From assembly GCF_003688915.1 (NCBI RefSeq), contig NZ_REFU01000001.1, forward strand, positions 2,914,001 through 2,978,000: a stretch of DNA of 64,000 nt. The letters run 5' to 3'. The notes below the pieces were generated by a model, which was not told the origin of the DNA, searched no databases, and saw only the letters and a list, made by a program, of their open reading frames with translations. The first letter of the stretch is position 1, and every line of letters starts with the position of its first letter. Of the stretch, positions 42,345 through 58,248 are shown piece after piece. The translations under genes were made by a program, and so were the position numbers. The DNA is from Rhodococcus sp. SBT000017. Lineage in GTDB: Bacteria > Actinomycetota > Actinomycetes > Mycobacteriales > Mycobacteriaceae.

Positions 42345-44489
42345 TCAACCCGGAGAGTGCGAATAATTCCACAGACCGACCCCTGCATCCGGCTGTGGCG
42401 AGGCCTCGGAGACATCTGTCACAGAGAACCAGTCGCGATCATCGGCCGCGACCGGCATTCCACTGAACGGCGAGGTGTGCCACGCAAGAACACCCACCTG
42501 CTGCTCCTGCCAGACGCCCACAGGCCGCCCGTCCAGAAGGCCTTGTTCGTACAGCCCGACGCGCACACTCGCTGAGTCGTATTCAGTGGCCCAGTCCTCT
42601 ACACCGGTCTCCCCCACGAAGAACGGAACTCCACGTCGGCGTGCTTCCGACACGAACGTACGCATTCGGGCCGCTAACTGTTCGTCATTTATTCGACCGT
42701 CCCCGCCGTAGTTGACCGGCCAGCGGCTGTACACGTGAATCGAGAAAATGACGGGTCCGTAACCGCGCGCTGCGCCGAAGTCGTTCATCAAGTTCGGCCC
42801 TCGGGAAAGAACGAAAGACTGCTCCGGATCCACCGGCCCGGCACCGATGGTCGCACTGTTCGGAATATCGTTCGCAAAGTTCGCTGCATCCAGCACGATC
42901 GGCGTCCGCGGCGCGACGGCCCTGATTCGGGTCAGCATGCTGCGGTATTGCCCCTCCAGTCCATCCAGGTCGCCTCCTGGTTCATTGATGGGATTGATCC
43001 ATACGTACGGGTTGTCGGCAAAGATCTTGGCGACCTCGACCCACCAATCGGTCATCGCTTCGGCAATCGACCGTCCGGTCCCATCGGGGGCACTCCCGGG
43101 CGCGGTGTTCAACAATCCGTCGGTCGAACCCATTTGACCCTGAGCGCCTTTGGAGAATTGAGAGAGGACTACCACGATTTCGCGCGAGGTGTACTCATCC
43201 ACTATGCGGCGCAAGTCGTTGTTCCGAAAGTACAGATATCCGCCCGAAATCGCTCCCCAGTCGGACATACCGCAGCCGATTCGGACGGTGTTCCACCGCC
43301 AGTTCTCGGCTGCAGCAGCCGATTCACCGATGACCTTTTCGTTCCAAAAGTAATCAAGCCCCGACATATTGGATCCAACCGGGATGAACGAGCGGTCCTC
43401 CGGGTCGAGGATCGCGAAACCGTCGGTCCGGAACTCGCCATCGAATGCTCGAGACCGAACAGCGTTAGATCCGGCGACCTCGACACCTGCACTGAGTGGG
43501 GAACTGTATCCGGCATCATCCACGGCAGTGAGGTTGATGGATGCACCCGCTGCGATTCGGTCGACCGGAACCACGAGTTCCGTCCCCTGGGTCTGCTGGC
43601 CGATGAACCTCTCACCAGCGAAAACGTTGCATGCGAAAGGCGCAGAGGAGTTGTTGTAGGACCAAGAGACGGTGACTGTGGCCGAATCCTGCTTCGCCTC
43701 AGCAAGATCAGGCGCTTGTAAGTTGTCGACGGCGCGCGGCCAGGTGCGATCATACGCGCTGACTCGAACGCGATTGAGCGACTCACCGATCTCGGTCGAG
43801 GGGTCCGAGTACGCGACCACGAAGTACTCGTTTTCGACCGATGGAAGCACCCCGGTGGCGAAGAAGTGGGTCGCGGGTGCACTTCCGCTGACCCGATCCG
43901 CACTCAGGACTGCGAGCGGGCGCACTTCACCTTCCCGAAACAACCGATACTCGGCCGGGGTCGAGTTCCTGTCTCCGGTGGGATGCGCCCATCGGAACTG
44001 CACTCCGCTGGCCGCCGGGATTGCGACCAGGAAAGGCGGCCGCGAAGAATCGTCGGGAGTAGCGACCTCGCGCACCAACTGAGCGGTCGAAGCGGACTGG
44101 CGTCCGTCGGCATCGATGGTTCGCACGAAGAATGCGTGTATTCGATCGTCCGCGAAGCCGTCGAGAGTGACCAGTGTCTTGTCAGTCTCGAGCTGGAGTT
44201 CGTCGTCGACGTAAACCTGATACCGGGGCACTCCGGACGAGACCGAACCTGCGGACCACGTGAGCGTCATGACCGATGCAGCACTGACAGCACCAATGAG
44301 CTGGGTCGGCGGCTTCAGTGGGTCGAACAGAGCGCTCGCGCTCTCGCCCGAATCACTCTGTTGTGGAGTTTGGCCTTGCTCGTCCGACGAGCACGCGCCC
44401 AGTAGAGGCAAGGCGGCAGACACGGCTCCGATTTTGAAAAACTGCCGTCGCGTCGGTCCGCGATTCGCCGCTCCGGAGTGGTAAGTCAT
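42345..44489 (-). CDS. Tat-exported lipoprotein with FN3-like domains and GH5-like hydrolase
   Basis: Encodes 714 residues. The N-terminus has a twin-arginine motif (TRRQFFKIG) leading to a lipobox (LLGAC), so it should be a Tat-exported lipoprotein. Residues about 55-330 hold two or three FN3-like beta-sandwich units (SVMTLTWSAGSVSSG, VQFRWAHP, ATVTVSWSYN). Residues about 350-700 are a GH5-like barrel: WINPINEPGGD has the acid/base Glu and FFVGETGVEDW the nucleophile Glu. It probably trims or releases the exopolysaccharide at the cell surface. It is a paralogue of the divergent gene at 44639. Confidence 0.82.
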   Translation of the reverse strand: MTYHSGAANRGPTRRQFFKIGAVSAALPLLGACSSDEQGQTPQQSDSGESASALFDPLKPPTQLIGAVSAASVMTLTWSAGSVSSGVPRYQVYVDDELQLETDKTLVTLDGFADDRIHAFFVRTIDADGRQSASTAQLVREVATPDDSSRPPFLVAIPAASGVQFRWAHPTGDRNSTPAEYRLFREGEVRPLAVLSADRVSGSAPATHFFATGVLPSVENEYFVVAYSDPSTEIGESLNRVRVSAYDRTWPRAVDNLQAPDLAEAKQDSATVTVSWSYNNSSAPFACNVFAGERFIGQQTQGTELVVPVDRIAAGASINLTAVDDAGYSSPLSAGVEVAGSNAVRSRAFDGEFRTDGFAILDPEDRSFIPVGSNMSGLDYFWNEKVIGESAAAAENWRWNTVRIGCGMSDWGAISGGYLYFRNNDLRRIVDEYTSREIVVVLSQFSKGAQGQMGSTDGLLNTAPGSAPDGTGRSIAEAMTDWWVEVAKIFADNPYVWINPINEPGGDLDGLEGQYRSMLTRIRAVAPRTPIVLDAANFANDIPNSATIGAGPVDPEQSFVLSRGPNLMNDFGAARGYGPVIFSIHVYSRWPVNYGGDGRINDEQLAARMRTFVSEARRRGVPFFVGETGVEDWATEYDSASVRVGLYEQGLLDGRPVGVWQEQQVGVLAWHTSPFSGMPVAADDRDWFSVTDVSEASPQPDAGVGLWNYSHSPG

Positions 44490-44638: not shown

Positions 44639-46885
44639 GTGTCCAGCAGATTACATATCGCCTCGATAGCGTTGACGTCAAGAGTTTCCGTCATATTTAG
44701 GGCAAATAACAAAACAGCCCGAGAAACGAGACCGATCATCTTGGACGAATCACGAATTCCCGGTCTCCACCAACATCGGGTGAGCAGACGTACATTTCTG
44801 GTCTCGGCACCTGTTGTCGTCGGAACTTTCGGGCTGGCAACGCAGTTCGATACAGCAACGGCAGACGCTCAACCTCCTGCTGGTCTCGCTCTGCTCTCCG
44901 ATTTCGAGGGGGCGGTCCCGCCCACCCAGATAGCAGTGAAGTGCACGGTGCCCGGAACGTTCGCAGTGAGCTGGTCGCCTGGGTCGATTCCCTCGGGATC
45001 GATGCGATGCAACGTGTACTTGGACGACGTGTTGGTCGCCACGTCCTGGGGCGTGTCGGCAACCATCGCCGGGGTCGACACCACAGAGGTCCACACCGTG
45101 GAGGTGGCGACGTTGACCGCAGACAACGTCGAGTCGGAGCGATCATCCGGGGTGATCAGAACCGCTGTGCCAGATGATGATTCCGGTTCTGTACCAGCCG
45201 CTCTTTTCGGCCTGAGATCGTTCGGCGGTGTTCAACTACGGTGGTTGCACGCCGGCCCCAACCGGGACAGAAAACCTGCTCAGTACATCGTCCGGTCCAC
45301 GGCGAGCGCGAACCCGTTGGAAGTGCTGCAGGGTGACGACACGAGCTGCTTCGTCACAGGACTTCCAGTGGGTATCGAGTCAGAACTGATCCTCGAAAGC
45401 TTGGATACGGCCGGGGCTGTGATTGCGGAAGCGCGTAATCGCATTCGGGTCACTCCGTATTCGAGAGCTCTCCTCAACGATTATTCGGCACCTACGGTTC
45501 CGACGGGTGTATCGGCAGTGAGCGGTAGAAGCGCGCTTCGCGTCTCCTGGACCGCGTCGGCGGACTCCGGGTCAGGGGTACTCGGCTACAAGGTCTATGC
45601 AAACCAGCTGTTCCGGGGGCAGGTCGAAGGCGCGACGACTCTGGTCATCGCTGGATTGCAGAATGCAGTCACTCACCGAGTCACCGTTTCGTCCTACGAC
45701 CGTGCCGGCAACGAGTCGGCGCAGTCCGCGCAGACGAACGCCATCCCCTACTACAGCTCACCTGTGATGCAGCCACCTGCGCAGCCGAATTATTTCAAGA
45801 CTCAGAAGAACAAGATCATCGACCCGGCTGGGCTCGCGTACATCCCCATCGGTGCAAATCTGAACGGACCTTCGTTCCTGTGGAACGACGACACGCGCGG
45901 TCGGTCGGCAGCTGCAGCCGACCTGTGGAAGTGGACGTGCGTTCGGTTGAGTACCGGAAACCGAGACTACGAATCCCCTCAGGGTTACACCTATTTCAAC
46001 AACAATCAGCTCGATGCCATTGTCAGCGAGTACACCGCCAAGAAGATCGTTGTCATGATCGCCCAGCATTCGGCCGTAGGCGGCGGGGGTGCCGGCTCCA
46101 ATTTGCCCACGGCCGCGGGTTCGTCGGGAGATCCGAGCGGACGGTCGTCGGAGCAGGCGTCCATCGACTGGTGGGTGGAAGTCGCCAAGCGGTATCGCGA
46201 CAATCCGTACGTCTGGTTCAACCTGATCAACGAGCCCGGTCCCAATCAGGCGGAACTCGACGCTCAGTATCGACGGATGTTGGCTCGCGTACGCGCGGTG
46301 GCTCCACGCTCGACCATCGTTCTGGACGCCGCGTCTTTTGCGAACGACATTCCTACGTCCACGACCATAGGCACAGGTGCCTTGAGGGAAGTCGACTCTT
46401 ATGTACTGTCGCGTGGTTCCTCGATTGCCGCAGACTTCGGACCCGGCAAAGGCTACGGACCGATAGTTTTCTCGGTTCATCTCTATGCTCGGTGGGCGGT
46501 CAATTGGGGTGGAACGGGATCGACCCGACTTACCGACGAAGAGCTCGGCACCCGTCTCCGCGATTACTGCCAGCGGGTTGCCGCTAAATCGTTGCCGCTT
46601 CTGATCGGCGAGATCGGAGTGGAGGCATACGCATTCGACGCTGACAGCCTGTGCGTCAAAGCTGGACTGTATGAGCAAGGTTCCGTGGTTCGGAACGGAG
46701 TTACGACAACCACCGGCGTGCTTGTCGAGCAAGGCGTCGGGGTGCTCGCCTGGCACGCTGCCCGGACGAGCGGTATGTCCGTAGCCAAGCCATCTGTGAA
46801 TTGGTGGGCTACCGATACCCGGGACAAGACCAATCCACCGCCGCACGCAGGAACTGGATTGTGGGACTACGGAAACGGTGAATGA
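44639..46885 (+). CDS. Tat-exported FN3-like and GH5-like hydrolase
   Basis: Encodes up to 748 residues. The start is uncertain: GTG 44639 opens the frame, but TTG 44741 puts the Tat signal (SRRTFLVSAPVVVGTFGLA) at the expected distance from the N-terminus. Unlike its paralogue it has no lipobox, so it is likely secreted free or wall-held. FN3-like units (FAVSWSPGSIPSG, LRVSWTASADSG) precede the GH5-like barrel with WFNLINEPGP (acid/base Glu) and LLIGEIGVEAY (nucleophile Glu). Divergence from 42345-44489 and shared layout indicate an old duplication. Confidence 0.82.
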   Translation: MSSRLHIASIALTSRVSVIFRANNKTARETRPIILDESRIPGLHQHRVSRRTFLVSAPVVVGTFGLATQFDTATADAQPPAGLALLSDFEGAVPPTQIAVKCTVPGTFAVSWSPGSIPSGSMRCNVYLDDVLVATSWGVSATIAGVDTTEVHTVEVATLTADNVESERSSGVIRTAVPDDDSGSVPAALFGLRSFGGVQLRWLHAGPNRDRKPAQYIVRSTASANPLEVLQGDDTSCFVTGLPVGIESELILESLDTAGAVIAEARNRIRVTPYSRALLNDYSAPTVPTGVSAVSGRSALRVSWTASADSGSGVLGYKVYANQLFRGQVEGATTLVIAGLQNAVTHRVTVSSYDRAGNESAQSAQTNAIPYYSSPVMQPPAQPNYFKTQKNKIIDPAGLAYIPIGANLNGPSFLWNDDTRGRSAAAADLWKWTCVRLSTGNRDYESPQGYTYFNNNQLDAIVSEYTAKKIVVMIAQHSAVGGGGAGSNLPTAAGSSGDPSGRSSEQASIDWWVEVAKRYRDNPYVWFNLINEPGPNQAELDAQYRRMLARVRAVAPRSTIVLDAASFANDIPTSTTIGTGALREVDSYVLSRGSSIAADFGPGKGYGPIVFSVHLYARWAVNWGGTGSTRLTDEELGTRLRDYCQRVAAKSLPLLIGEIGVEAYAFDADSLCVKAGLYEQGSVVRNGVTTTTGVLVEQGVGVLAWHAARTSGMSVAKPSVNWWATDTRDKTNPPPHAGTGLWDYGNGE

Positions 46886-46916: not shown

Positions 46917-48377
46917 TCAGGCGCGCATGGACACGGCGCGTCTGAACAAGCGGAACACATCCCGAACATCTCTGCGAGCAGCAGGTAGGAGCAGAATTAT
47001 GAGGAGCCCTGTGGCGAACTGAACGCCTACCGAAACCGAGGCCAAGAACAAATCTCCGCCAACAAGGAACTCACGAACCAATACCGCGACAATGTAGGCG
47101 AAGATCCACACTACCAATGGCCGCGCGAAAGAAATCATCACGGACCTGAACGAAAGGTATGTCCCTCGGGATATCCACCAGATATTGAATACCACCGATA
47201 TGTACGTAACGGCGACATAGCCAATGGCGACAGTTTCAACGCTCACCGTCGCTGCGGCGATCAACACGGCGGCCGCAACCGACTGCGCAATCAGAGTACC
47301 CGAGATTTGCCTGCTCATCGCGCCGAGTGCGGTTGCGGACAATTCGAATAGCAATAGGACACTTCGGACCGTGCCTGCCAGGGCAATGATAACGAGGAGT
47401 TGTCCCGCAAAGCGCCACTGTTCACCGTAGACGAAAGTCACGGCAGGCACCGCAGCCAGGCTCAGGCTGGTGAATATCGGGGTCAACGTGTAACCGATTG
47501 CGTTCACAGCTTGATTCACTGCCTTTTGGAATCGATCCGGTGAATCCTGCAGCTTGGACAACACCGGTAACGCGACAGCCGTCATTGCCGATGTCAATTG
47601 CTGTTCGACAATTCCAACGACTTGCGAGGCACGATTGTACAGACCAACCGTGTCTGCACCGTAAAAACGACCTACGGCGATCACGTCCATGCTTCGAGAA
47701 AGAAACGTAGCCGATTGAATAAATGTGATTTGAAGACCCTGCTTGACAAGAATACCTACCTCCCGCAAGGGGGCTGGTCGACTAGGTCGAAAGTTGGATC
47801 TCAAGATCAGCGTTAGCGCCCATAACACGCTGGACACCACAGATGATGTCACGATCGCCCAGTATCCGAAGCCTTTGACTGCGAGCACGATTGCGACGAC
47901 CAATTGCACGAGCCCGACCGCGACCTGCGTACCACCGAGCACGCTGAAGCGCAACGATCTGAGAAGATCCGCACGGGACTGGCCCGAGAACGAAGAGATC
48001 AAGAAAGTCAAAGACAGTACACGTGCAACATTCTCTACCTCCGGCTGATTGTAGAACGAAGCAATAAGAGGAGCCAACGCAAACATGGTCAGCGTCAGCA
48101 CAAGGCCAAGAAGGATATTCATCAGCCAAATTGATGTTTGCTGCGAATTGGTAAGATCTTTTGCCCGAACAACGGCGGATGTCAATCCTAGATCCTGAAA
48201 GAGAACAGTGAATCCGATGACGACAGTGACCATGGCCACAATCCCGAAGTCATTTGGGCTCAGCAGGCGTGCGAGCACTACGGATGAGGCCAGCATGGTA
48301 ATAGTATTTCCCCACTTGGCCAACAAAGTAACGAAGACGCCACGGGCGGCTGACTGACCCAAGTCCACCTCAGACAA
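46917..48377 (-). CDS. Polysaccharide flippase, WzxC-like (second copy)
   Basis: Encodes 486 residues with about 14 membrane spans. The opening QSAARGVFVTLLAKWGNTIT and LLSPNDFGIVAMV are the characteristic start of the WzxC/TuaB polysaccharide-transport family. YNRASQVVGIVEQQLTSAM is a conserved mid-protein stretch. It would flip lipid-linked repeat units. It resembles WzxC more than the first flippase at 25550 does. It is convergent with the GH5-like gene at 44639. Confidence 0.88.
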   Translation of the reverse strand: MSEVDLGQSAARGVFVTLLAKWGNTITMLASSVVLARLLSPNDFGIVAMVTVVIGFTVLFQDLGLTSAVVRAKDLTNSQQTSIWLMNILLGLVLTLTMFALAPLIASFYNQPEVENVARVLSLTFLISSFSGQSRADLLRSLRFSVLGGTQVAVGLVQLVVAIVLAVKGFGYWAIVTSSVVSSVLWALTLILRSNFRPSRPAPLREVGILVKQGLQITFIQSATFLSRSMDVIAVGRFYGADTVGLYNRASQVVGIVEQQLTSAMTAVALPVLSKLQDSPDRFQKAVNQAVNAIGYTLTPIFTSLSLAAVPAVTFVYGEQWRFAGQLLVIIALAGTVRSVLLLFELSATALGAMSRQISGTLIAQSVAAAVLIAAATVSVETVAIGYVAVTYISVVFNIWWISRGTYLSFRSVMISFARPLVVWIFAYIVAVLVREFLVGGDLFLASVSVGVQFATGLLIILLLPAARRDVRDVFRLFRRAVSMRA

Positions 48378-48676
48378 CTAGACCCCAATCTCGGTTCAGG
48401 CCCTACCGGTGCCGCAAGCCCCTCTTCTACACAGAATTGAACCATGCCAGGCTGCTTCTTCGCTGATCGAGCCCCGGGGCAAACCCGCTCCGTTGAGCCC
48501 CGGCCGATGTCGTGGTAGTCGAAGCGCAACAGAGCCCGTCGGTCCGTGTGGACAGCCACTGACCCCGCATCGCACCTCGCTGACCAGATAGCACATGGCA
48601 CTCGAGAGAAACTGTGATATTCACCAGATCATGCTCATTGCACGCATGCCACCTGCCGAACTGGTTTACTCGATGT
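48378..48676. other. Intergenic region upstream of the RiPP cluster
   Basis: About 300 bp separate the divergent flippase and nucleotidyltransferase genes. It must contain both promoters. No coding frame resembles a family, and no palindrome or hairpin stands out. Confidence 0.45.
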
Positions 48677-49804
48677 ATGGCTCATCTGGCGCGGCCGAAA
48701 CGTGCCGCACGCGGTTTGTTGATCGAGTCGGTCAAAGCCATCGCAAACCAGTCTGAACTACCCTCTATCCCTATCGATCTCGAGCCGTACTGGGTCGACT
48801 GCGCACTATTCTCCGGTCTTGGACCTCTGATTGCCCACAAGCTACTCGATGTCGGCACTGCTGTTCCCGCCGAACTTGCGGATTCGATACGACCTGCAGC
48901 GGCCATGCACCTCCTGCACCTTGCAGTGCTGAGGATCATAAGGAATGCACTCGACGCCGCCGGTGTTCGGTGGCTGGTGTTCAAGGGTCCAGCCGTCGCC
49001 GAGCAATTTTACGAGGCCCCCAGCGCCCGCACCTACTCCGACCTGGACATTCTCATTCACCCCGCCGACTTCGAGCGTGGACTTACCGCGCTGCTCCAGG
49101 GTCCTGCCCGGCTGATCGACCAGAATTGGTTCCTGATCAGCGAACGCGAGCAAGGAGAGATCACACTTGCGATCGGTGCGACCGTGATCGATCTGCATTG
49201 GCACTTCTTTTCTTCGGCCCTCACCCGATCGACCTTTCAACTCGACATCTGCCGCACATTCGACCACGCTTGCACAACCACCTTGGGGGGTGTCGAGATG
49301 ACAGTTCTCGACACGGCCGACACAGTAATCTTCCTCGCCACGCACGCGGTACTGTCGGGTGGTCATCGCTTGAAGTGGATGTTCGATTTCCACTGCGCAG
49401 CAGCAAGTCTCAATGTGCCGAACGACGTAATCCGCAAACGAATCCGTGAATACAATGTCGAACTTCTCGTATCGGTGATGGCGTCGAGAACGGCTGCGTT
49501 CCTGGGGACCGATGCGCCGGTCGAGCACGGACACCACCCCTGGCTTGCCCTGAGTCGACTGGCGTCGAGAGCAGCTCCGCCGGAATCCGAGTTTCTGAAT
49601 GCGTACACCGCGCGTGCACTGTTCAGCGCAACACGTACATCTACGAGAAACAGTGTTGTCCAGTTTGTGCGCAATGCGGTTCGGCTTGCGCGCACCGGAT
49701 CCAACCGCCGCAGCCACGTGGTCGATCGCAGCATTCTGCATCTACCCGGCGGAACAGAAGCCGATCGCCGCCGGTGGCTGGATATGGTTGCGTCTCACGG
49801 GTGA
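48677..49804 (+). CDS. Nucleotidyltransferase-family protein of the RiPP cluster
   Basis: Encodes 375 residues from ATG 48677 (a GTG at 48614 is possible). The centre has VRWLVFKGPAVAEQFY and TYSDLDILIHP, the G-S/A and DxD-type elements of the uncharacterised nucleotidyltransferase family PF14907. DLHWHFF and a C-terminal helical part follow. Such genes often accompany kinase-type lasso-peptide clusters and are thought to modify the peptide with a nucleotide. It is plus strand, convergent with the B2 peptidase, 15 bp between ends. Its link to the cluster rests on position and family precedent. Confidence 0.78.
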   Translation: MAHLARPKRAARGLLIESVKAIANQSELPSIPIDLEPYWVDCALFSGLGPLIAHKLLDVGTAVPAELADSIRPAAAMHLLHLAVLRIIRNALDAAGVRWLVFKGPAVAEQFYEAPSARTYSDLDILIHPADFERGLTALLQGPARLIDQNWFLISEREQGEITLAIGATVIDLHWHFFSSALTRSTFQLDICRTFDHACTTTLGGVEMTVLDTADTVIFLATHAVLSGGHRLKWMFDFHCAAASLNVPNDVIRKRIREYNVELLVSVMASRTAAFLGTDAPVEHGHHPWLALSRLASRAAPPESEFLNAYTARALFSATRTSTRNSVVQFVRNAVRLARTGSNRRSHVVDRSILHLPGGTEADRRRWLDMVASHG

Positions 49805-49819
49805 GCGGGTTGCCCAACA

Positions 49820-50278
49820 TTACTTGCGCGTCGAGTTGTTCGACGGAGCCGGAAGCCGGTGAATGATCGAGTACTGGACAAGAAGCTTCTCTGTGGTTTC
49901 GTGATCGAGCCACGCGTGCGCTGTAAAGTCCGAATCTTCCCTGCGGACTCCGATCACGACCTCGGCGTCGACACCGTGCGAGGCAAGCCATCGCTGCTTG
50001 ACGAGAGAACGTTCCAGGCAGGTGGGGCTCAATCGCCGCAGAACCGCGTCTACTCCGCGGCGGCTTCCGATTGGCAGGGACGCCGGTACCCGCACCTCGG
50101 TGTTGACGCCCGAAACGGGCAGGGCTTTGCGCGTCTCACGACATGCTTTCGCTGCCCAGAATGCCGCGCGGAGCACTTGGATGTTAAATCGCGACAGCCG
50201 AGGAGTCGACCGATATTCCCCATAGCTCAACTCATCCAACGGATCTCCCAAACAGAGCGGGAAGCCGTGCATCTTCAT
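49820..50278 (-). CDS. Lasso-type leader peptidase B2 (transglutaminase-like)
   Basis: Encodes 152 residues. A papain/transglutaminase-like triad is visible: Cys87 in LSPTCLERSLV, His121 in FTAHAWLDHE and Asp125 in the same stretch. This is the pattern of the B2 protein (McjB C-terminal domain) that cuts the leader from lasso precursors while the RRE protein holds it. The gene starts 21 bp after the precursor stop, and its start codon lies in the loop of a 13-bp-stem hairpin. This may lower its expression relative to the precursor. Confidence 0.88.
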   Translation of the reverse strand: MKMHGFPLCLGDPLDELSYGEYRSTPRLSRFNIQVLRAAFWAAKACRETRKALPVSGVNTEVRVPASLPIGSRRGVDAVLRRLSPTCLERSLVKQRWLASHGVDAEVVIGVRREDSDFTAHAWLDHETTEKLLVQYSIIHRLPAPSNNSTRK

Positions 50279-50292
50279 CGCACGGCTTCCCG
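50258..50292 (-). promoter_or_regulatory. Hairpin between precursor and B2 genes
   Basis: CGGGAAGCCGTGC and GCACGGCTTCCCG form a perfect 13-bp stem with a 9-nt loop, transcribed just after the precursor stop (50300-50302). The loop holds the B2 start ATG (50276-50278), and the 5' arm covers its upstream ribosome-binding region. It may act as a transcription attenuator, or as a translational gate giving more precursor than protease. Confidence 0.75.
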
Positions 50293-50299
50293 CGGTGTG

Positions 50300-50458
50300 T
50301 CACGAATTGATGGTGACCGTGACGTCTCCGCCCGTCAGGCCGGACAATGCGGTGTAGCCGTCCGCGCCGCTACCGGACTTCGTAATTGTTCCGGGTGCGA
50401 GAGTCATTGCAGAGAGAGATCCCAAGTCTGAGATCTGTGGTGCGGAGTACTGTGCCAT
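50300..50458 (-). CDS. Lasso-type RiPP precursor peptide
   Basis: Encodes 52 residues; AGGA lies 7 nt before ATG 50458. The leader has YSAPQI, G13 and T19. If the core begins at Ala21 (Thr at -2), Tyr4, Pro7 and Ile9 fall at -17, -14 and -12, exactly the recognised lasso leader positions. The core would be Ala21-Ser52 (32 residues), starting APGTITKSG. It has no Asp or Glu at positions 7-9, where the ring-closing acid normally sits; the first acid is Asp at core 13. The core is Gly/Thr/Ser-rich and ends in Ser, the residue phosphorylated in paeninodin-type peptides. The mature structure is therefore uncertain. Confidence 0.85.
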   Translation of the reverse strand: MAQYSAPQISDLGSLSAMTLAPGTITKSGSGADGYTALSGLTGGDVTVTINS

Positions 50459-50569
50459 GTTGAATTCCTTTGGTTTGTGCCGGTTCCGACTAGAAGATCT
50501 TAACTTTCGGTTCGATTCGACCCCAGCACGTTGTGTTACAAACATATATCCCGAAAGTAGTGAGTGAAA

Positions 50570-51427
50570 CTAACTTGAAGCGATCGATCCCGCTCGCGTA
50601 CGGAATCTCTCCACGGAGCGCACGAGCGACTGCATAGCCACATCAACGTGCCCCCAATCTTGGGGGCGCCTGAACTCGAACGCCGGTGCAGAGATCGAGT
50701 TGAGCCAGGGCACTTGATGATTCTGTCCGACGCTGATGCCGCGGTTGGCGATCAGCATCGCCACACGCTCTTGGGCCGTCATCGCTCGGACCGACGTTTC
50801 GCCCCATTTCAACGCGATCCATCCCCCCAAAGGGGCCGAGGCCACTCCATCGTCGAGTTGGACGCGCCAACGTCGCCGCGTTCCCACGACGCCGATATCG
50901 ACACCTACACCGAAATGTTCTGCGGCACTTTGCCTCAGGTCGATGCACCGCGGTCCGGCCAGAACCTGATGCCCGTCGGTGACGACCAAGTCGTCCGAGA
51001 ACACCTCCACTCCGTTGGCCACACACCAACCGAGGAAAGAGCTCTTGCCGTGCTCACGATCGCCCAGCACGCCCCACACGTACCCGGCGGAATCCAGAAA
51101 CGCGCCACCGTGGAAAACCAGACGCTGGTTCCACTCTGCGACCATAAGCGCGGTGGACGCCAGCAACGGGTGCACGTATGCATCTCGCACCGGAAATTTG
51201 CCTTGGCGGACGGTCGTCACCGAACGCTTCCGGTCGATGTGAACGTATCCACGCGGCTGGGTGTACAGCATCGCCGAATCCAGCGAAACATGTTGTGGAG
51301 GGCGCTTGACGAGTGGGCTGGCATCGACCACAAAGGACCACGGAACCCAGTCCGCCGGAGCGGACTTGAGCCAATTCTGCCCAGGCATTCCCGGCAATGT
51401 CAGACCGTACGCACCGAGCTCACTCAT
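50570..51427 (-). CDS. HPr-kinase-like protein of the RiPP cluster
   Basis: Encodes 285 residues; start 51427 overlaps the ABC exporter stop by 8 bp. The P-loop is GDREHGKSS (about residues 122-130), followed by VEVFSDDLVV, which matches the HprK-type acidic motif. Homologues in lasso clusters (PadeK, ThcoK) phosphorylate the C-terminal Ser of the precursor. The precursor here ends in Ser, which fits. A role as a peptide kinase is inferred from family and context. A 111-bp gap to the precursor could hold a separate promoter for it. Confidence 0.83.
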   Translation of the reverse strand: MSELGAYGLTLPGMPGQNWLKSAPADWVPWSFVVDASPLVKRPPQHVSLDSAMLYTQPRGYVHIDRKRSVTTVRQGKFPVRDAYVHPLLASTALMVAEWNQRLVFHGGAFLDSAGYVWGVLGDREHGKSSFLGWCVANGVEVFSDDLVVTDGHQVLAGPRCIDLRQSAAEHFGVGVDIGVVGTRRRWRVQLDDGVASAPLGGWIALKWGETSVRAMTAQERVAMLIANRGISVGQNHQVPWLNSISAPAFEFRRPQDWGHVDVAMQSLVRSVERFRTRAGSIASS

Positions 51428-53204
51428 CGGCCGACTCGATCGAGTATGCCGCCGACTGCAGCGTGAACAGATCGGCATATTTCCCGCCGCGACTCATCAA
51501 CTCGTAATGGCTGCCACACTCGACCACGCGACCCCCGTCGAGAACGTAGATGCGATCTGCGTGCTTCACGTTGGAATATCGATGGGAGATCAGCAGAGCG
51601 GCTCGTCCGTCCAGCACCCGGCGAACATCGTGGAACAACTCGTTCTCTGCGCGTGGGTCGAGCGCTGCGCTCGGCTCATCGAGGACAATCAACGAAGAGT
51701 TTTTCAGGAGCGCCCGTGCCAATGCCATGCGCTGCCATTGCCCACCCGATAGATCGAGCCCATCGTCGAGGTCGCGGCCGAGCATGGTGTCGAAGCCCGA
51801 AGGAAGCGAGGCGATCGTCTCGGCCAGCTGCGCACCTTGTGCCGCCAGGTGAACCCGTCCCGGATTGGTAATCGCCCGCCCAGCAATGTCGATGTTGTCG
51901 CTGACACTGAACGAGAACTGAGCGAAGTCCTGAAAAACCATCGTGACGCTTGCCCGGACCCGCTCGCGAGCGAGCGGCTCGTCGTCCCATAGAATTTCTC
52001 CCGAGTCCGCCTCATACAGACCGGCGACAATATTTGCGAGAGTCGTTTTGCCCGAACCGTTTTCGCCCACAAGCGCAACAACCTCGCCACGGTCGATGAA
52101 CAGATCGATACCGGCCAAGGCAGCAGTTTCACGACCAGGGTATTGGAACCCGACATTCGAGAGCGTCAGTCTTCTATGCAGTACCTCCGGCTCCCCCAGC
52201 GCATTGACTTTCGGCCGGTTCCGCAGGAACTTGTTGAGTTCGGCGACGAAAGGAGCTGACTCGGTCAAGGTACTGAACGAGCCGTACACCGAACTGAGCT
52301 GCGAACCGAGGATCCTGACGGCGATGGCAGCCGCACCGGCTTGCGGAAGGCTCAGAAAATTTCGATCCAGCATGTAGACGATCACCAGCAGGACCGCTAC
52401 CAAGCTCAGTGCCGAGCCTGCAATCTGAACCAGCGCCAACCTCGTACGGCCGGCAACCTGCGTCTTCAACCCATCGGCGACGACGCCGTCCAGCATCGTA
52501 TGCCGAGATCGCAGGTTGGGAGCCGCACCGAAGGAGCGTACTTCGGCCGCATATTCCCGGTGCGTCAGAACCCGCCGTAAATACTCCCGACGCAGAAAAT
52601 CCGGAGTCAGCCTCTGCGCAAACGCAAACTCGGAACGAGAAGCCAACCGCGAGACGATAACTGCCGGGATAGCACCGAGAAAGAGAATGGGGGCCAACAC
52701 CGGTGCGATGCTTACCAGTGCAAACAACATTGCAACCACACCCAACCCCGCGCCCATCAACCCGAAGACACTCTTGGTCATGGGAAGCGGTCGGGTCATC
52801 CCGCCTCGCTCCACGTTCGCATACTCGGTGATGAATCCCGGTTGTTCGTAGGTCATCAAATCGACGTTCGTGACGACGTCGAGGACCTCGTTCCACACCA
52901 GTTGACTCACTCGCTCACCGAGCAATCGTTCCTGCTGGTTCCGGATGACGGCGATGCTTCCAGTGATTGCCGTTACCAACGCCAACCCCAGCAGCGGCCA
53001 CAACAACTGCTGCGGCGAGGTCGCCCCGTCATCGAGAATTCGCTCGAGCAGGACCTTGCCGATCACCACCGTGCCGATGGCAGCAACCGCGCCCACCACC
53101 TGGAAGACGCCGGTACTGATCGTACGTCTTCGATCTGCCCTGATCGCCAAGCCCAGAGCAACCTTCGACGACTGAATTGCCTCGCGTGCAAAAGAATTAG
53201 GCAT
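51420..53204 (-). CDS. ABC exporter (permease-ATPase fusion) of the RiPP cluster
   Basis: Encodes 594 residues. The N-terminal membrane domain has about six spans (about 30-310). The C-terminal ATPase domain has Walker A GENGSGKTT, Q-loop VFQDFAQF, signature LSGGQWQRMALARAL and Walker B LIVLDEPSAALD. This is the MsbA/McjD-like half-transporter layout (active as a dimer). It probably exports the mature peptide and may give self-immunity. No C39 peptidase domain is present, consistent with leader removal by B2. It overlaps both neighbours by about 8 bp. Confidence 0.9.
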   Translation of the reverse strand: MPNSFAREAIQSSKVALGLAIRADRRRTISTGVFQVVGAVAAIGTVVIGKVLLERILDDGATSPQQLLWPLLGLALVTAITGSIAVIRNQQERLLGERVSQLVWNEVLDVVTNVDLMTYEQPGFITEYANVERGGMTRPLPMTKSVFGLMGAGLGVVAMLFALVSIAPVLAPILFLGAIPAVIVSRLASRSEFAFAQRLTPDFLRREYLRRVLTHREYAAEVRSFGAAPNLRSRHTMLDGVVADGLKTQVAGRTRLALVQIAGSALSLVAVLLVIVYMLDRNFLSLPQAGAAAIAVRILGSQLSSVYGSFSTLTESAPFVAELNKFLRNRPKVNALGEPEVLHRRLTLSNVGFQYPGRETAALAGIDLFIDRGEVVALVGENGSGKTTLANIVAGLYEADSGEILWDDEPLARERVRASVTMVFQDFAQFSFSVSDNIDIAGRAITNPGRVHLAAQGAQLAETIASLPSGFDTMLGRDLDDGLDLSGGQWQRMALARALLKNSSLIVLDEPSAALDPRAENELFHDVRRVLDGRAALLISHRYSNVKHADRIYVLDGGRVVECGSHYELMSRGGKYADLFTLQSAAYSIESADE

Positions 53205-54399
53205 GGCCCTCCCTCAGAGGGAAAGACTTCTGCGAAGACAGCCAGGCCTGTTGCAGTAGACAAAGGCTGTGGACTCCCGGGTCTTCCCTGAGCCACTCCG
53301 CGCGAACGATCTCGGGTCTGACAATCGTCTCGTCGAGTCCGGTGCCGTCCCAATCTCGCGCGAACTCGCGCGACTCACCGTTCCACAACGACGGAGTGAA
53401 CGAGGCTTTCGATGTACGTTTCATCACTTCAGCCGGGAGAAGACCTCCCACCAGTAACTCCATCATTGCACGGCGACCGCGTAGCCCCACTGACGGAGAA
53501 TGCGCCGCAAATGCTTGCAGCACAGGAGAACTGACGAATGGATGCACTACCCGAACATCGTGTAGTGATGCAAGATCGTTCATGCTTTGCTTCGCCATCT
53601 CGAAATAGCGTGACCGCGGAATCCACTCCCGGAGAATCTTGCCCCAACCCATGGGAATGCTTGCGCTGTCAGTCGCGGAACGGTGCGTGGCCTGAGCACG
53701 CCCCTTGCGAGTAAGCCAAGGAAAATCGAGCCGATCAGGCATGCTGAACGGCAGATCAGCAACGTAGCGGAACGGTTGCGGACTGCCGTAATGCACAATC
53801 GACATGACTTTGCGAGGAGTCAGACCCCGCGGGTTCGCGAGCGCTCGGGCGGACCAACGATTTGACGCCGACAATGCAAGCTCGTCGCCGCCGAAACCCG
53901 TCACCAACGTACCTCCCGCCGCGTCGCGACAGATGACACCATGCAGGTGAGTATTGAACGGCCACATTACACCGAAGGCAGTCAACAACTCCCGGGCCGA
54001 CTCACCCAGCGCATCCATCTCGGTAGTCAGGGAGTACTGCAGACGCTCGGTGACGCCGAGGTGATCGAGCACCAGGTTCTGCCACTCCGACTCGTGTGAC
54101 TCCTCGATACCGGGAAAGTGCAATGTGGCCGGAATCGGCAATGCGAGCCCCTCAGCTCGGGCCACGTCGACGGCAGCGGCGAGAACCGCCGAGGAGTCTC
54201 GACCGCCGGAGAAGCTCATGACGCACGGGCCGTGTTCGAGTGCCGACCGGACAGTGTCACGAAAAGCAGTGCGAGGTGTTGCCGCGGCGGACTCTTCCAG
54301 GACAGGCCGGGATCTATCCAAGCCGCTCGGCCTGGACGTAGCAATCTCGATAGACGACAGAGGTGCCAGACGAGCCCCTGCGGCGTCAGATCGAACCAT
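53197..54399 (-). CDS. Asparagine-synthetase-type macrolactam cyclase, short form
   Basis: Encodes 400 residues; start 54399 overlaps the RRE gene end by 14 bp. The ATP-pyrophosphatase loop is SFSGGRDSSAVL (about residues 62-73), followed by VTGFGGDELA, as in asparagine synthetase B and McjC-type lasso cyclases. Those enzymes activate a side-chain carboxylate as acyl-AMP for macrolactam formation. The usual N-terminal glutaminase-like domain of about 200 residues is absent: only about 60 residues precede the loop, and the RRE gene lies immediately upstream. This short form is unusual for a lasso cyclase. Confidence 0.85.
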   Translation of the reverse strand: MVRSDAAGARLAPLSSIEIATSRPSGLDRSRPVLEESAAATPRTAFRDTVRSALEHGPCVMSFSGGRDSSAVLAAAVDVARAEGLALPIPATLHFPGIEESHESEWQNLVLDHLGVTERLQYSLTTEMDALGESARELLTAFGVMWPFNTHLHGVICRDAAGGTLVTGFGGDELALSASNRWSARALANPRGLTPRKVMSIVHYGSPQPFRYVADLPFSMPDRLDFPWLTRKGRAQATHRSATDSASIPMGWGKILREWIPRSRYFEMAKQSMNDLASLHDVRVVHPFVSSPVLQAFAAHSPSVGLRGRRAMMELLVGGLLPAEVMKRTSKASFTPSLWNGESREFARDWDGTGLDETIVRPEIVRAEWLREDPGVHSLCLLQQAWLSSQKSFPLREGHA

Positions 54400-54667
54400 C
54401 GGCGACCTTGACGATATTGCGTTCCAACAGCCCGTCCAGAAGCGCGTCGACATCCTGCGCAGCAACATCTTCGGAGATCTTGTACTCGTCGACGAGCTTG
54501 GCGATCATATCGTCACGTGACGTGCCATTCACCAACAGTGGCCACAGTTCGCAGCCGGACTCGTTCAGCGCGAAGTACTGCGAACCTTCGAGATCGAGGA
54601 TCACGATCTCGACCCCACTGTTGGTCCACGTCACGCGCGAAGCCTCTACGACAAAGGTCTGGCTCAT
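54386..54667 (-). CDS. PqqD-like RRE protein (lasso B1 type)
   Basis: Encodes 93 residues. The N-terminal strands (VVEASRVTWTNSGVEIVILDLEGSQYFALNESG) and the helices after them match PqqD-like RiPP recognition elements. Such proteins bind the leader and deliver the precursor to the B2 peptidase and cyclase. It is the first gene of the minus-strand RiPP operon and overlaps the cyclase start by 14 bp. The cluster promoter should lie in the 130 bp upstream. Confidence 0.88.
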   Translation of the reverse strand: MSQTFVVEASRVTWTNSGVEIVILDLEGSQYFALNESGCELWPLLVNGTSRDDMIAKLVDEYKISEDVAAQDVDALLDGLLERNIVKVADGSI

Positions 54668-56751: not shown

Positions 56752-58071
56752 CTACGGTCGCCCCAGTCCTCGGTACGTCCAGCCGGCTGCACGCCACAGT
56801 GCAGGCTCCAAACAGTTGCGACCATCGATGAGCGACTTCGCTCGCACAACAGGTTCGATGTCTTTCGGTGTCAGTGCCTTGAACTCTTTCCACTCGGTCA
56901 GCACCAGCACCACGTCGGCCCCTTGGCAAGCCTCGAGTGCGGAGCTGCAGTACGTGAGAGTGGGAAACAGCGCGCGGGAGTTGTCCATGGCCTTCGGGTC
57001 GTACACATTGACGGCAGCACCCTGCAGCTGGATCTGCCCGGCCACATTCAGCGCAGGTGAATCGCGGACGTCGTCCGAATCGGGTTTGAACGCCGCGCCC
57101 AGCACCGCCACTCGCGCCCCGAGAAGCGAGCCGCAGGCCTCACGGGCCAACTCGACCATCCGAGTACGGCGACGCATGTTGATGTTGTCCACCTCGCGTA
57201 GGAACGTCAGCGCCTGATCGGCCCCGAGCTCGCCCGCACGGGCCATGAAGGCTCTGATGTCCTTGGGCAGGCAGCCACCACCGAATCCGATGCCCGCGTT
57301 GAGGAACTTTCGGCCGATGCGCTCGTCATGACCGATCGCGTCAGCGAGCACGGTGACATCGGCGCCAGCCGCTTCACACACCTCTGCAATGGCGTTGATG
57401 AACGAGATCTTGGTCGCCAGAAACGCGTTTGCGGAGGCCTTGACCAGCTCGGCCGTGGCCAAATCCGTGACCAAGAAAGGAATCTTCTCGTCGAGCAGCT
57501 GCGCATAGACCTCCCGAGCGAGATCCTCCGCACGGCCGGGACGGGCGCGGTCCACGCCCAGTACCAGGCGATCGGGGTGGAGGGTATCTTTGACAGCGAA
57601 ACCCTCGCGCAGAAACTCCGGATTCCACGCGATCTCGACATCGTCACCGGCCGGCGAGAGTTCGCGAGCCATCGCCCCGAGTCGCTCCGCCGTGCCCACC
57701 GGGACCGTCGACTTGCCGAATATGACCGCCGGCTTGGTCAGCAGCGGCGCGAGCGTCTCGACCACCGAGTCGACGAATTTCATGTCGGCCGCGAACTCGC
57801 CCTTTTTCTGGGGAGTACCGACGCCGAGGAAATGAACCTCTGCAAAGTCCGCGGCTTCTTGATACGACGCGGTGAAGCGCAGTCGTCCGGCGGCGATGTT
57901 GCGCTGCAGCACCTCTTCGAGACCAGGCTCCCAGAACGGCACCTCGCCGGCTTCGAGCTTGGCGAGCTTGGCTGGATCGACGTCGACACCGAGCACTTCG
58001 TGGCCGAGCTCGGCCATGCACGCGGCGTGAGTTGCGCCGAGGTACCCGGTACCGAAAACAGTGATTCGCAT
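56752..58071 (-). CDS. ugd: UDP-glucose 6-dehydrogenase
   Basis: Encodes 439 residues. The NAD site is ITVFGTGYLGATHAACMAELGH. The conserved middle has FGKSTVPVGTAE and WNPEFLREGFAV, and the catalytic Cys is in GFGGGCLPKD. A C-terminal UDP-binding domain follows with AFKPDSDDVRDSPA. It oxidises UDP-glucose to UDP-glucuronate using 2 NAD+, supplying an acidic sugar for the exopolysaccharide. Start 58071 gives MRITVFG; an in-frame ATG lies 15 bp upstream. Confidence 0.95.
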   Translation of the reverse strand: MRITVFGTGYLGATHAACMAELGHEVLGVDVDPAKLAKLEAGEVPFWEPGLEEVLQRNIAAGRLRFTASYQEAADFAEVHFLGVGTPQKKGEFAADMKFVDSVVETLAPLLTKPAVIFGKSTVPVGTAERLGAMARELSPAGDDVEIAWNPEFLREGFAVKDTLHPDRLVLGVDRARPGRAEDLAREVYAQLLDEKIPFLVTDLATAELVKASANAFLATKISFINAIAEVCEAAGADVTVLADAIGHDERIGRKFLNAGIGFGGGCLPKDIRAFMARAGELGADQALTFLREVDNINMRRRTRMVELAREACGSLLGARVAVLGAAFKPDSDDVRDSPALNVAGQIQLQGAAVNVYDPKAMDNSRALFPTLTYCSSALEACQGADVVLVLTEWKEFKALTPKDIEPVVRAKSLIDGRNCLEPALWRAAGWTYRGLGRP

Positions 58072-58248
58072 GCGGCCGATCCCCATCGTTTGTATCGAAT
58101 GATGTATTTCGCGAAACGGCCAGCTGCCCCAGCGAGAGTCCCCGCTACCTCGACCGAATCACTGAAAATATAAGCACGGGGCAGCCGGGCCCGTACCTCG
58201 AGGGAGAATCATCACAGAACCACGCGAAAACAATGAACAGAAGGTGAC

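What the first reader, a model, noticed from the sequence alone, without database searches (positions are those of the whole stretch)
48677..54667. Lasso-type RiPP cluster whose core lacks the canonical ring-closing acid
The cluster has every lasso component (RRE, B2 peptidase, asparagine-synthetase-type cyclase, ABC exporter, kinase, nucleotidyltransferase). The 52-residue precursor fits the leader rule exactly: Tyr, Pro and Ile at -17, -14 and -12 and Thr at -2. Yet core positions 7-9 are Lys, Ser, Gly, and the first Asp is at 13. Either the ring is larger than any canonical lasso, the cleavage site differs, or the product is another macrocycle or linear modified peptide.
Basis: partly seen in the sequence, partly recalled or inferred. 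Interest (0 to 1): 0.88.

Follow-up and report, generated by a model that had tools for sequence, protein, structure and literature searches.

The report
Lasso-like peptide with predicted Lys-Asp ring
This bacterium carries a lasso-peptide-type gene cluster whose precursor has no acid at the usual ring position; instead it and its close relatives share a lysine and an aspartate exactly six residues apart, which the cluster's ring-closing enzyme would likely join, a ring closure that our searches did not find reported for lasso-type enzymes.

Summary
The cluster is complete, the 52-aa precursor fits the leader rule exactly, and counting from the canonical cleavage site there is no Asp/Glu at core positions 7-9. 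Homologues supply the missing logic. Asp33 is conserved. Its distance from the canonical cleavage site varies among relatives (core positions 7 to 15), but a Lys lies exactly six residues before it in 11 of 11 precursors of the window's cyclase group (seven of them found with a profile holding that pair). The same spacing occurs in 2 of 21 precursors of other short-cyclase clusters. The leader Thr keeps the invariant Tyr+15 spacing. In one relative, one cyclase serves two tandem precursors with the same K-x-G-R-x-x-D motif but N-terminal offsets that differ by four residues. Most likely the cyclase joins the Lys27 side chain to Asp33, a graspetide-like lactam made by a lasso-type enzyme. The rival, an ordinary 8-residue lasso ring after a displaced cleavage, is weaker because 14 of 23 pair-bearing precursors lack a Thr at that site. 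Kinase, nucleotidyltransferase and C-terminal Ser match pseudomycoidin-type tailoring; 7 of 10 loci lie beside polysaccharide genes. All chemistry is inferred; no product is known.

The parts
50300..50458 (-). precursor peptide gene, 52 aa; leader residues 1-20, predicted core 21-52 ending in Ser52
   Evidence: homologues
50360..50389 (-). T24-I-T-K27-S-G-S-G-A-D33 block: Lys27 and Asp33 are the predicted lactam partners; the K-to-D spacing of six recurs in 11 of 11 precursors of the cyclase group
49820..50278 (-). B2 leader peptidase (transglutaminase-like)
   Evidence: NF033537 47.7 bits; PF13471
50570..51478 (-). HprK-like kinase, predicted to phosphorylate the C-terminal Ser
   Evidence: weak profile match to HprK structures; conserved H, GKS and DD; no Pfam hit above cut-off
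51420..53204 (-). ABC exporter
   Evidence: PF00005, MsbA-like
53197..54468 (-). short asparagine-synthetase-type macrolactam cyclase without an N-terminal glutaminase-like domain; likely start at 54399
   Evidence: PF00733; NF033561 matched from profile position 181, below cut-off; alignment; tree; start
54386..54667 (-). RRE (PqqD-like leader-binding protein, B1)
   Evidence: PF05402; NF033530/NF033536 below cut-off
48614..49804 (+). NTP_transf_5 nucleotidyltransferase, predicted tailoring enzyme (PsmN-like role)
   Evidence: PF14907
54799..56310 (-). flanking sugar transferase of the polysaccharide locus
   Evidence: PF02397; context
56752..58086 (-). flanking UDP-glucose-dehydrogenase-like gene (name recalled, no family scan made; a 96% identical gene lies beside the L006 cluster)
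   Evidence: ORF; context
46917..48377 (-). flanking polysaccharide flippase
   Evidence: PF13440/PF01943; context
44639..46885 (+). flanking GH5 (cellulase-family) protein with an fn3 domain
   Evidence: PF00150, PF00041; homologue beside the L018 cluster

Best explanation
The cluster likely makes a side-chain macrolactam: its lasso-type cyclase is predicted to join the Lys27 side-chain amine to the Asp33 side chain, in place of the N-terminal amine used by known lasso peptides. Inferred steps: the RRE binds the Tyr-x-x-Pro-x-Ile leader; B2 cuts after Leu20 (Thr19 at -2), leaving a 32-residue core; the cyclase adenylates Asp33 and Lys27 attacks it, giving a ring of seven residues (K-S-G-S-G-A-D) with a six-residue N-terminal tail and a 19-residue C-terminal tail; the kinase and nucleotidyltransferase modify Ser52 with phosphate and possibly sugar; the ABC protein exports the product, perhaps to act with the polysaccharide made by the flanking genes. 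Whether the tail threads the ring is unknown. Shown by calls: the gene set, the conserved Lys-Asp pair and its spacing, the grouping of the cyclases, and the polysaccharide neighbourhood.
For: (1) In the window's cyclase group the pair Lys...(six)...Asp is present in 11 of 11 precursors from 10 loci, while the Asp lies at core positions 7 to 15 (sd 2.5). In other short-cyclase clusters it is in 2 of 21 (L017, L100), and their acid is at 7-9 in 20 of 21. (2) L018: one cyclase, two tandem precursors, KVGRGSD and KEGRKID: same K-x-G-R-x-x-D, N-terminal offset differing by four. (3) Close relatives L118, L124 and L126: the Asp moves from 9 to 10 and the Lys moves with it from 3 to 4. (4) The leader Thr is at Tyr+15 in 16 of 16 family members and 40 of 40 control precursors (the search pattern required a Thr some 13 to 17 residues after the Tyr, not at 15), and in the seven later members, so the canonical cleavage signal is retained. 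(5) Core residue 1 is Gly/Ala in 19 of 21 other short-cyclase precursors but in 1 of 11 here, as expected if the N-terminal amine is no longer the nucleophile. (6) The label clusters on the cyclase tree: 3 changes against a shuffled mean of 8.8, 0 of 500 shuffles as low. (7) R90, D91, G191, G193-E196, R351 and K354 of the adenylating site are kept in 10 of 10 cyclases of the group. Lys-Asp macrolactams are known chemistry in graspetides (PMC13097080, passages).
Against: No product, mass or structure exists. Known lasso cyclases use the N-terminal amine. Seven of the 11 precursors (all but those of the window, L006 and L018) were found with a profile that contains the Lys and Asp columns, so the 11 of 11 is partly circular; the four found through the cyclase or the window precursor alone are window, L006 and both of L018. 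Five of 11 also have some acid at 7-9 (L006 D8, L119 D8, L018p1 D7, L124 D9, L126 D9), so an N-terminal ring is not excluded for them. Thr at Lys-3 in 9 of the first 16 members is not explained by this reading. L017 has the pair although its cyclase groups with a canonical one, and two cyclases with canonical precursors (L128, L129) fall inside the window's group. The same profile in 396 genomes of the phylum gave nine places outside the window; none of the eight read carries the pair, so it is rare. Fisher tests ignore relatedness. Shuffled-core chances of such a pair are not tiny for single precursors (0.04 to 0.21).
Confidence: 0.55

Rival explanations
1. Ordinary lasso peptide with a displaced (or second) cleavage: B2 cuts after Thr24-Ile25, so Thr24 is the -2 residue and the N-terminal amine of Thr26 closes a canonical 8-residue ring on Asp33; Lys27 is merely core residue 2.
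For: Thr24 is invariant in the four closest precursors, and Thr stands at Lys-3 in 9 of the first 16 members (window included), followed by Ile/Phe. The ring would be 8 in every member and needs no new chemistry. Position 1 can vary: metanodin uses Asn1 (PMC12670498, abstract and passages).
Against: Thr is absent from Lys-3 in 7 of the first 16 members and in all seven later ones. Position 1 would be Pro in L017 and L118. Thr19 at the exact canonical spacing would be conserved for nothing. In L018 the two precursors would need unrelated cleavage sites. The invariant Lys is unexplained.
Confidence: 0.2
2. N-terminal-amine macrolactam with a ring larger than any canonical lasso (13 residues in the window), with ring size varying between members.
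For: The canonical cleavage signal is intact, and position 11 is the commonest Asp place: 9 of the first 16 members and 3 of 11 in the cyclase group.
Against: Rings would range from 7 to 15 within one group; indels fall before the Lys, not between Lys and Asp; the invariant Lys is unexplained.
Confidence: 0.1
3. The cyclase does not cyclise this core (decayed or another amide chemistry) and the product is a linear phosphorylated peptide, as in the LPP family of Bacillota.
For: LPP clusters share RRE, HprK-like kinase, NTP transferase and MsbA-like exporter, and lie in capsule loci (PMC13381572, abstract and sections 6, 8, 12). Within short cyclases this group lacks a Glu (192) that 13 of 17 others have and an Arg (202) that 16 of 17 others have, beside the GGDE motif.
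Against: LPP clusters lack the macrolactam cyclase; here it is kept in all 10 loci with adenylating-site residues intact. Position 192 is also Phe, Leu, Tyr or Asp in long cyclases of canonical lasso clusters, so its change does not show loss of function.
Confidence: 0.1

Closest known systems
Kinase/nucleotidyltransferase lasso peptides (paeninodin, pseudomycoidin)
   Same: RRE, B2, cyclase, kinase, NTP transferase, exporter; precursor with YxxPxL-type leader, Thr at -2 and C-terminal Ser, which PadeK and PsmK phosphorylate and PsmN-dependent hexoses decorate (PMC9266682, passages)
   Different: No acid at core 7-9; acid bound instead to a Lys six residues before it; cyclase lacks the N-terminal domain
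Short-cyclase actinobacterial lasso clusters with acid at 7-9 (L095-L102, L007, L019, L122)
   Same: Same short cyclase family, kinase, leader, Ser-ending cores in many
   Different: Mostly Gly/Ala at position 1, acid at 7-9, no Lys at acid-6 (except L100); different branches of the cyclase tree
Graspetides (Lys-Asp/Glu side-chain macrolactams)
   Same: Predicted product bond: Lys side chain to Asp side chain (PMC13097080, passages)
   Different: Graspetides use ATP-grasp ligases; this cluster has an asparagine-synthetase-type cyclase, RRE and B2 peptidase
LPP (linear polyphosphorylated peptides), Bacillota
   Same: RRE, HprK-like kinase, NTP transferase and MsbA-like exporter, in capsule loci (PMC13381572, abstract and sections 6, 8, 12)
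   Different: LPP lack the cyclase and use an SpI-like leader peptidase

Membership tests
Lasso peptide | RRE, B2 peptidase and Asn-synthetase-type cyclase in one cluster | tested here: met
Lasso peptide | leader YxxPxL with Thr at -2, Tyr-to-Thr spacing 15 | tested here: met
   16 of 16 family and 40 of 40 control precursors; NF033521 itself below cut-off
Lasso peptide | Asp/Glu at core position 7-9 from the canonical cleavage site | tested here: not met
   window core KSG at 7-9, Asp at 13
Lasso peptide | N-terminal-amine macrolactam threaded by the tail | not testable with these tools
   needs a product
Kinase-tailored (paeninodin/pseudomycoidin-like) lasso | HprK-like kinase | tested here: inconclusive
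   weak profile match to HprK structures, no better than other P-loop ATPases; motifs H, GKS, DD kept
Kinase-tailored (paeninodin/pseudomycoidin-like) lasso | C-terminal Ser in the precursor | tested here: met
   Ser52 in the window; 9 of 10 complete precursors of the group (L124 ends SN; L119 is cut by its contig end)
Kinase-tailored (paeninodin/pseudomycoidin-like) lasso | NTP_transf_5 nucleotidyltransferase | tested here: met
   PF14907
Graspetide | ATP-grasp ligase | tested here: not met
   no ATP-grasp family in the tables of the 7 or 10 proteins scanned; the exporter's table shows 25 of 201 families
Graspetide | side-chain Lys-Asp/Glu macrolactam | not testable with these tools
   predicted from the conserved pair
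LPP | no macrolactam cyclase; SpI-like peptidase | tested here: not met
   cyclase present; no dedicated search for a signal peptidase was made

The most novel reading that the evidence does not exclude
An actinobacterial branch of short lasso-type cyclases has switched nucleophile from the N-terminal amine to a Lys side chain, giving 'Lys-Asp lassos': a seven-residue side-chain lactam whose place in the core is set by an internal K-x-(x)-G-...-D motif, free to slide relative to the leader, with phosphate/sugar on the C-terminal Ser and made within polysaccharide loci.
Probability: 0.5. Interest if true: 0.85.

Novelty: new variant of a known kind. Interest (0 to 1): 0.74.

Why it matters
If true, lasso cyclases are not tied to a freshly made N-terminus. 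The ring can sit anywhere in a core, could form before leader removal, and could leave an N-terminal tail that may also be threaded. Precursor finders that demand an acid at 7-9 would miss the class. A pair-based rule (Lys six before Asp) makes it minable, and one Lys27Arg/Asp33Asn experiment tests it. The link of these clusters to polysaccharide loci (7 of 10 loci of the group against 1 of 16 other short-cyclase loci) gives a handle on the unknown biological role of kinase-tailored lasso peptides.

Tried and rejected
AlphaFold2 of cyclase and kinase (3-row alignments) gave mean pLDDT 44.5 and 29.5; not used, no fold search made.

Cyclase positions 192 and 202 looked like markers of a changed active site, but long cyclases of canonical lasso clusters vary there too, so I do not count them as proof.

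Plasmids: no cyclase match; for the precursor one weak Nonomuraea match (E 0.5), not followed. Viral contigs gave none. The profile search with the four closest precursors gave nothing beyond P0001 and P0002. The window precursor alone matched 2 of 401 genomes of the family. The 16-row profile matched 9 of 396 genomes of the phylum: of the nine places outside the window, eight precursors were read and none has the pair; L031 has a stop inside and was not read.

The reading that the acid returns at +8 after a second Thr was my first choice from four homologues (note). I demoted it after brought relatives without that Thr. L017 was first counted as a full member; its cyclase groups with a canonical one, so it is left out of the 11 and stands among the 21.

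Rows left out of the 40 controls, judged by eye: reading-frame accidents (one each in L070, L080, L083, L086, L091, L097, L099) and; L026 (stops inside); L062 (a near copy of L095a); repeats of loci fetched twice. The L017 precursor was counted in the family there. The 21 'other' precursors are 20 plus that of L128, read as L112. L022 gave no precursor. L123 and L127 were not in the tree, so their precursors are not in the 21; neither has the pair.

Papers: PMC13381572 abstract and sections 6, 8, 12; PMC10368454 abstract and section 22; PMC12670498 abstract and passages; PMC9266682, PMC13097080 and PMC5067487 passages only; PMC8498205 word search without a passage; all others seen as listings only.
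Full report
WHAT IS THERE. On the minus strand, in order: RRE (54386-54667), short asparagine-synthetase-type cyclase (53197-54468, probably starting at 54399), ABC exporter (51420-53204), HprK-like kinase (50570-51478), precursor (50300-50458) and B2 peptidase (49820-50278); on the plus strand, convergent, an NTP_transf_5 nucleotidyltransferase (48614-49804). Polysaccharide genes flank the cluster: a sugar transferase and a UDP-glucose-dehydrogenase-like gene (name recalled) on one side, a flippase and a GH5 protein on the other. The search of the own genome gave no second precursor of this kind: the only other match is a stretch of a 512-residue frame at E 0.7. Another, canonical lasso cluster lies elsewhere in the genome (L071).

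THE OBSERVATION. The precursor is MAQYSAPQISDLGSLSAMTL|APGTITKSGSGADGYTALSGLTGGDVTVTINS, with the bar at the canonical site. Tyr4 to Thr19 is 15 residues, as in 40 of 40 control precursors, nearly all of actinobacterial lasso-type loci; 38 of these 40 have an acid at 7-9 (the exceptions L027 and L028 belong to a leader type reading H-T-F). The window has none. The exception is real.

HOMOLOGUES. The protein search found P0001 and P0002. The cyclase search found a syntenic cluster in Rhodococcus sp. IEGM 1381 (L006). Through the cyclase alone came L018 (a Williamsia by its protein record P0003) and L017 (Smaragdicoccus niigatensis by P0004). A profile of seven precursors gave 15 proteins, of which 13 (P0001-P0013) carry the pair and P0014 and P0015 are canonical. 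A 16-row profile searched in 396 genomes of the phylum gave nine places outside the window; none of the eight read has the pair. The same profile in 175 genomes of the order gave matches in 12 genomes, the window's included. Of the 14 places outside the window, seven carry the pair (L103-L107, L109, L111), six are canonical (L108, L110, L112-L114, L116) and one is the H-T-F type (L115).

THE PATTERN. Twenty-three precursors have a Lys exactly six residues before an Asp: 16 and seven. The Asp's distance from the canonical cleavage site varies; the Lys moves with it. I take as the core set the 11 precursors of the 10 loci whose cyclases group with the window's: window, L006, L018 (two), L117, L118, L119, L120, L121, L124, L126. 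The Asp positions there are 7, 9, 9, 10, 10, 11, 11, 11, 13, 15, 15. In the other short-cyclase clusters the pair occurs in 2 of 21 precursors (L017, L100) and an acid at 7-9 in 20 of 21. Core residue 1 is Gly or Ala in 19 of 21 there and in 1 of 11 here. Fisher p is 6e-7 for the pair and 1e-5 for residue 1, but relatives are not independent, and seven of the 11 were found with a profile that holds the Lys and Asp columns. The three precursors found by cyclase alone (L017, L018 p1, L018 p2) have shuffled-core chances of 0.12, 0.04 and 0.21 for such a pair. Five of the 11 also have some acid at 7-9.

TWO NATURAL EXPERIMENTS. L018 encodes one cyclase and two overlapping precursor genes, with cores KVGRGSDAF... 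and DKINKEGRKIDGM...: the motif K-x-G-R-x-x-D is shared and the N-terminal offset differs by four. In the related L118, L124 and L126, one residue more or less shifts the Asp between 9 and 10 and the Lys between 3 and 4. Both are what a Lys-to-Asp ring predicts and not what an N-terminal ring predicts.

WHY NOT A DISPLACED CLEAVAGE. In the window, Thr24 would be -2 and Asp33 +8, a perfect canonical lasso, and nine of the first 16 members (window included) have such a Thr. But all seven later members lack it, two members would start with Pro, and the canonical Thr is kept in every member. I give this 0.2. Large N-terminal rings (0.1) and a linear product like LPP (0.1) are the other rivals.

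THE CYCLASE. It lacks the N-terminal domain of long lasso cyclases: its two best lasso-type models match from profile positions 181 and 234 onwards. On a 27-row tree, 10 of the 11 pair-labelled cyclases fall in one 12-row group (96/98) together with L128 and L129, whose precursors are canonical, and L017 falls with canonical L019 (100/99); the label needs 3 changes against a shuffled mean of 8.8, 0 of 500 as low. The root is the midpoint, for drawing only, and the branching of the 12-row group is open, so a single origin of the ten is not shown. R90, D91, G191, G193-E196, R351 and K354 are kept in all ten. The ten lack Glu192 and Arg202, which 13 and 16 of the 17 other short cyclases have, but long cyclases of canonical clusters vary there too.

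TAILORING AND CONTEXT. Kinase, nucleotidyltransferase and a C-terminal Ser (9 of 10 complete precursors of the group) fit pseudomycoidin-type phosphorylation and hexosylation (PMC9266682, passages); the kinase's kinship to HprK rests on a weak profile match and motifs. Sugar-transferase or UDP-glucose-dehydrogenase genes lie within the fetched stretch of 7 of 10 loci of the group and 1 of 16 others (stretch lengths differ). Capsule-locus settings are known for LPP and some lasso clusters of Bacilli (PMC13381572, sections 6 and 12).

LITERATURE. Known lasso rings are typically 7-9 residues and N-terminal (PMC5067487, passages). Deviations at -2 (Ile/Val; PMC10368454, abstract and section 22) and at position 1 (Asn; PMC12670498, abstract and passages) are reported. 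Searches aimed at a Lys side-chain ring by a lasso cyclase (open-licence PubMed Central only, best rows listed) showed no title or abstract start reporting one. Lys-Asp lactams are known from ATP-grasp graspetides (PMC13097080, passages).

STATUS. Shown: gene set, conserved pair and spacing, leader spacing, grouping of cyclases, context. Inferred: cleavage site, bond, threading, phosphorylation and role.

Noticed in passing
L071 (own genome G000:C1:4124500-4137500): A second lasso cluster in the same genome, canonical, with precursor-like genes whose cores read FGIGGQAE and EFIGPHTE (acid at 8).
   Followed up: partly
L027, L028, L115/L127: A leader type ending H-T-F in other Actinomycetota has no acid at 7-9 and no Lys-Asp pair: another group of lasso-like precursors with an unexplained core.
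   Followed up: no
L017, 9175-9291(-): Smaragdicoccus precursor has K5 and D11 although its cyclase groups with the canonical L019; it may be an independent case or chance.
   Followed up: partly
L021: One locus carries two short cyclases, each near a canonical precursor.
   Followed up: no
P0007-P0011 and L117: A subgroup with the core block N-K-V-G-x-x-x-D, Asp at 11; the five P proteins come from short contigs (959 to 4234 bases) without context here.
   Followed up: partly
L122, 8582(-): Canonical core ANLFGSSPD lines up with NKVGTTPD but has Leu in place of Lys and the Asp at 9: a possible evolutionary intermediate.
   Followed up: no
window 42357-44327: A second GH5-like stretch (39% identical, minus strand) lies next to the GH5 gene at 44639-46885.
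   Followed up: no
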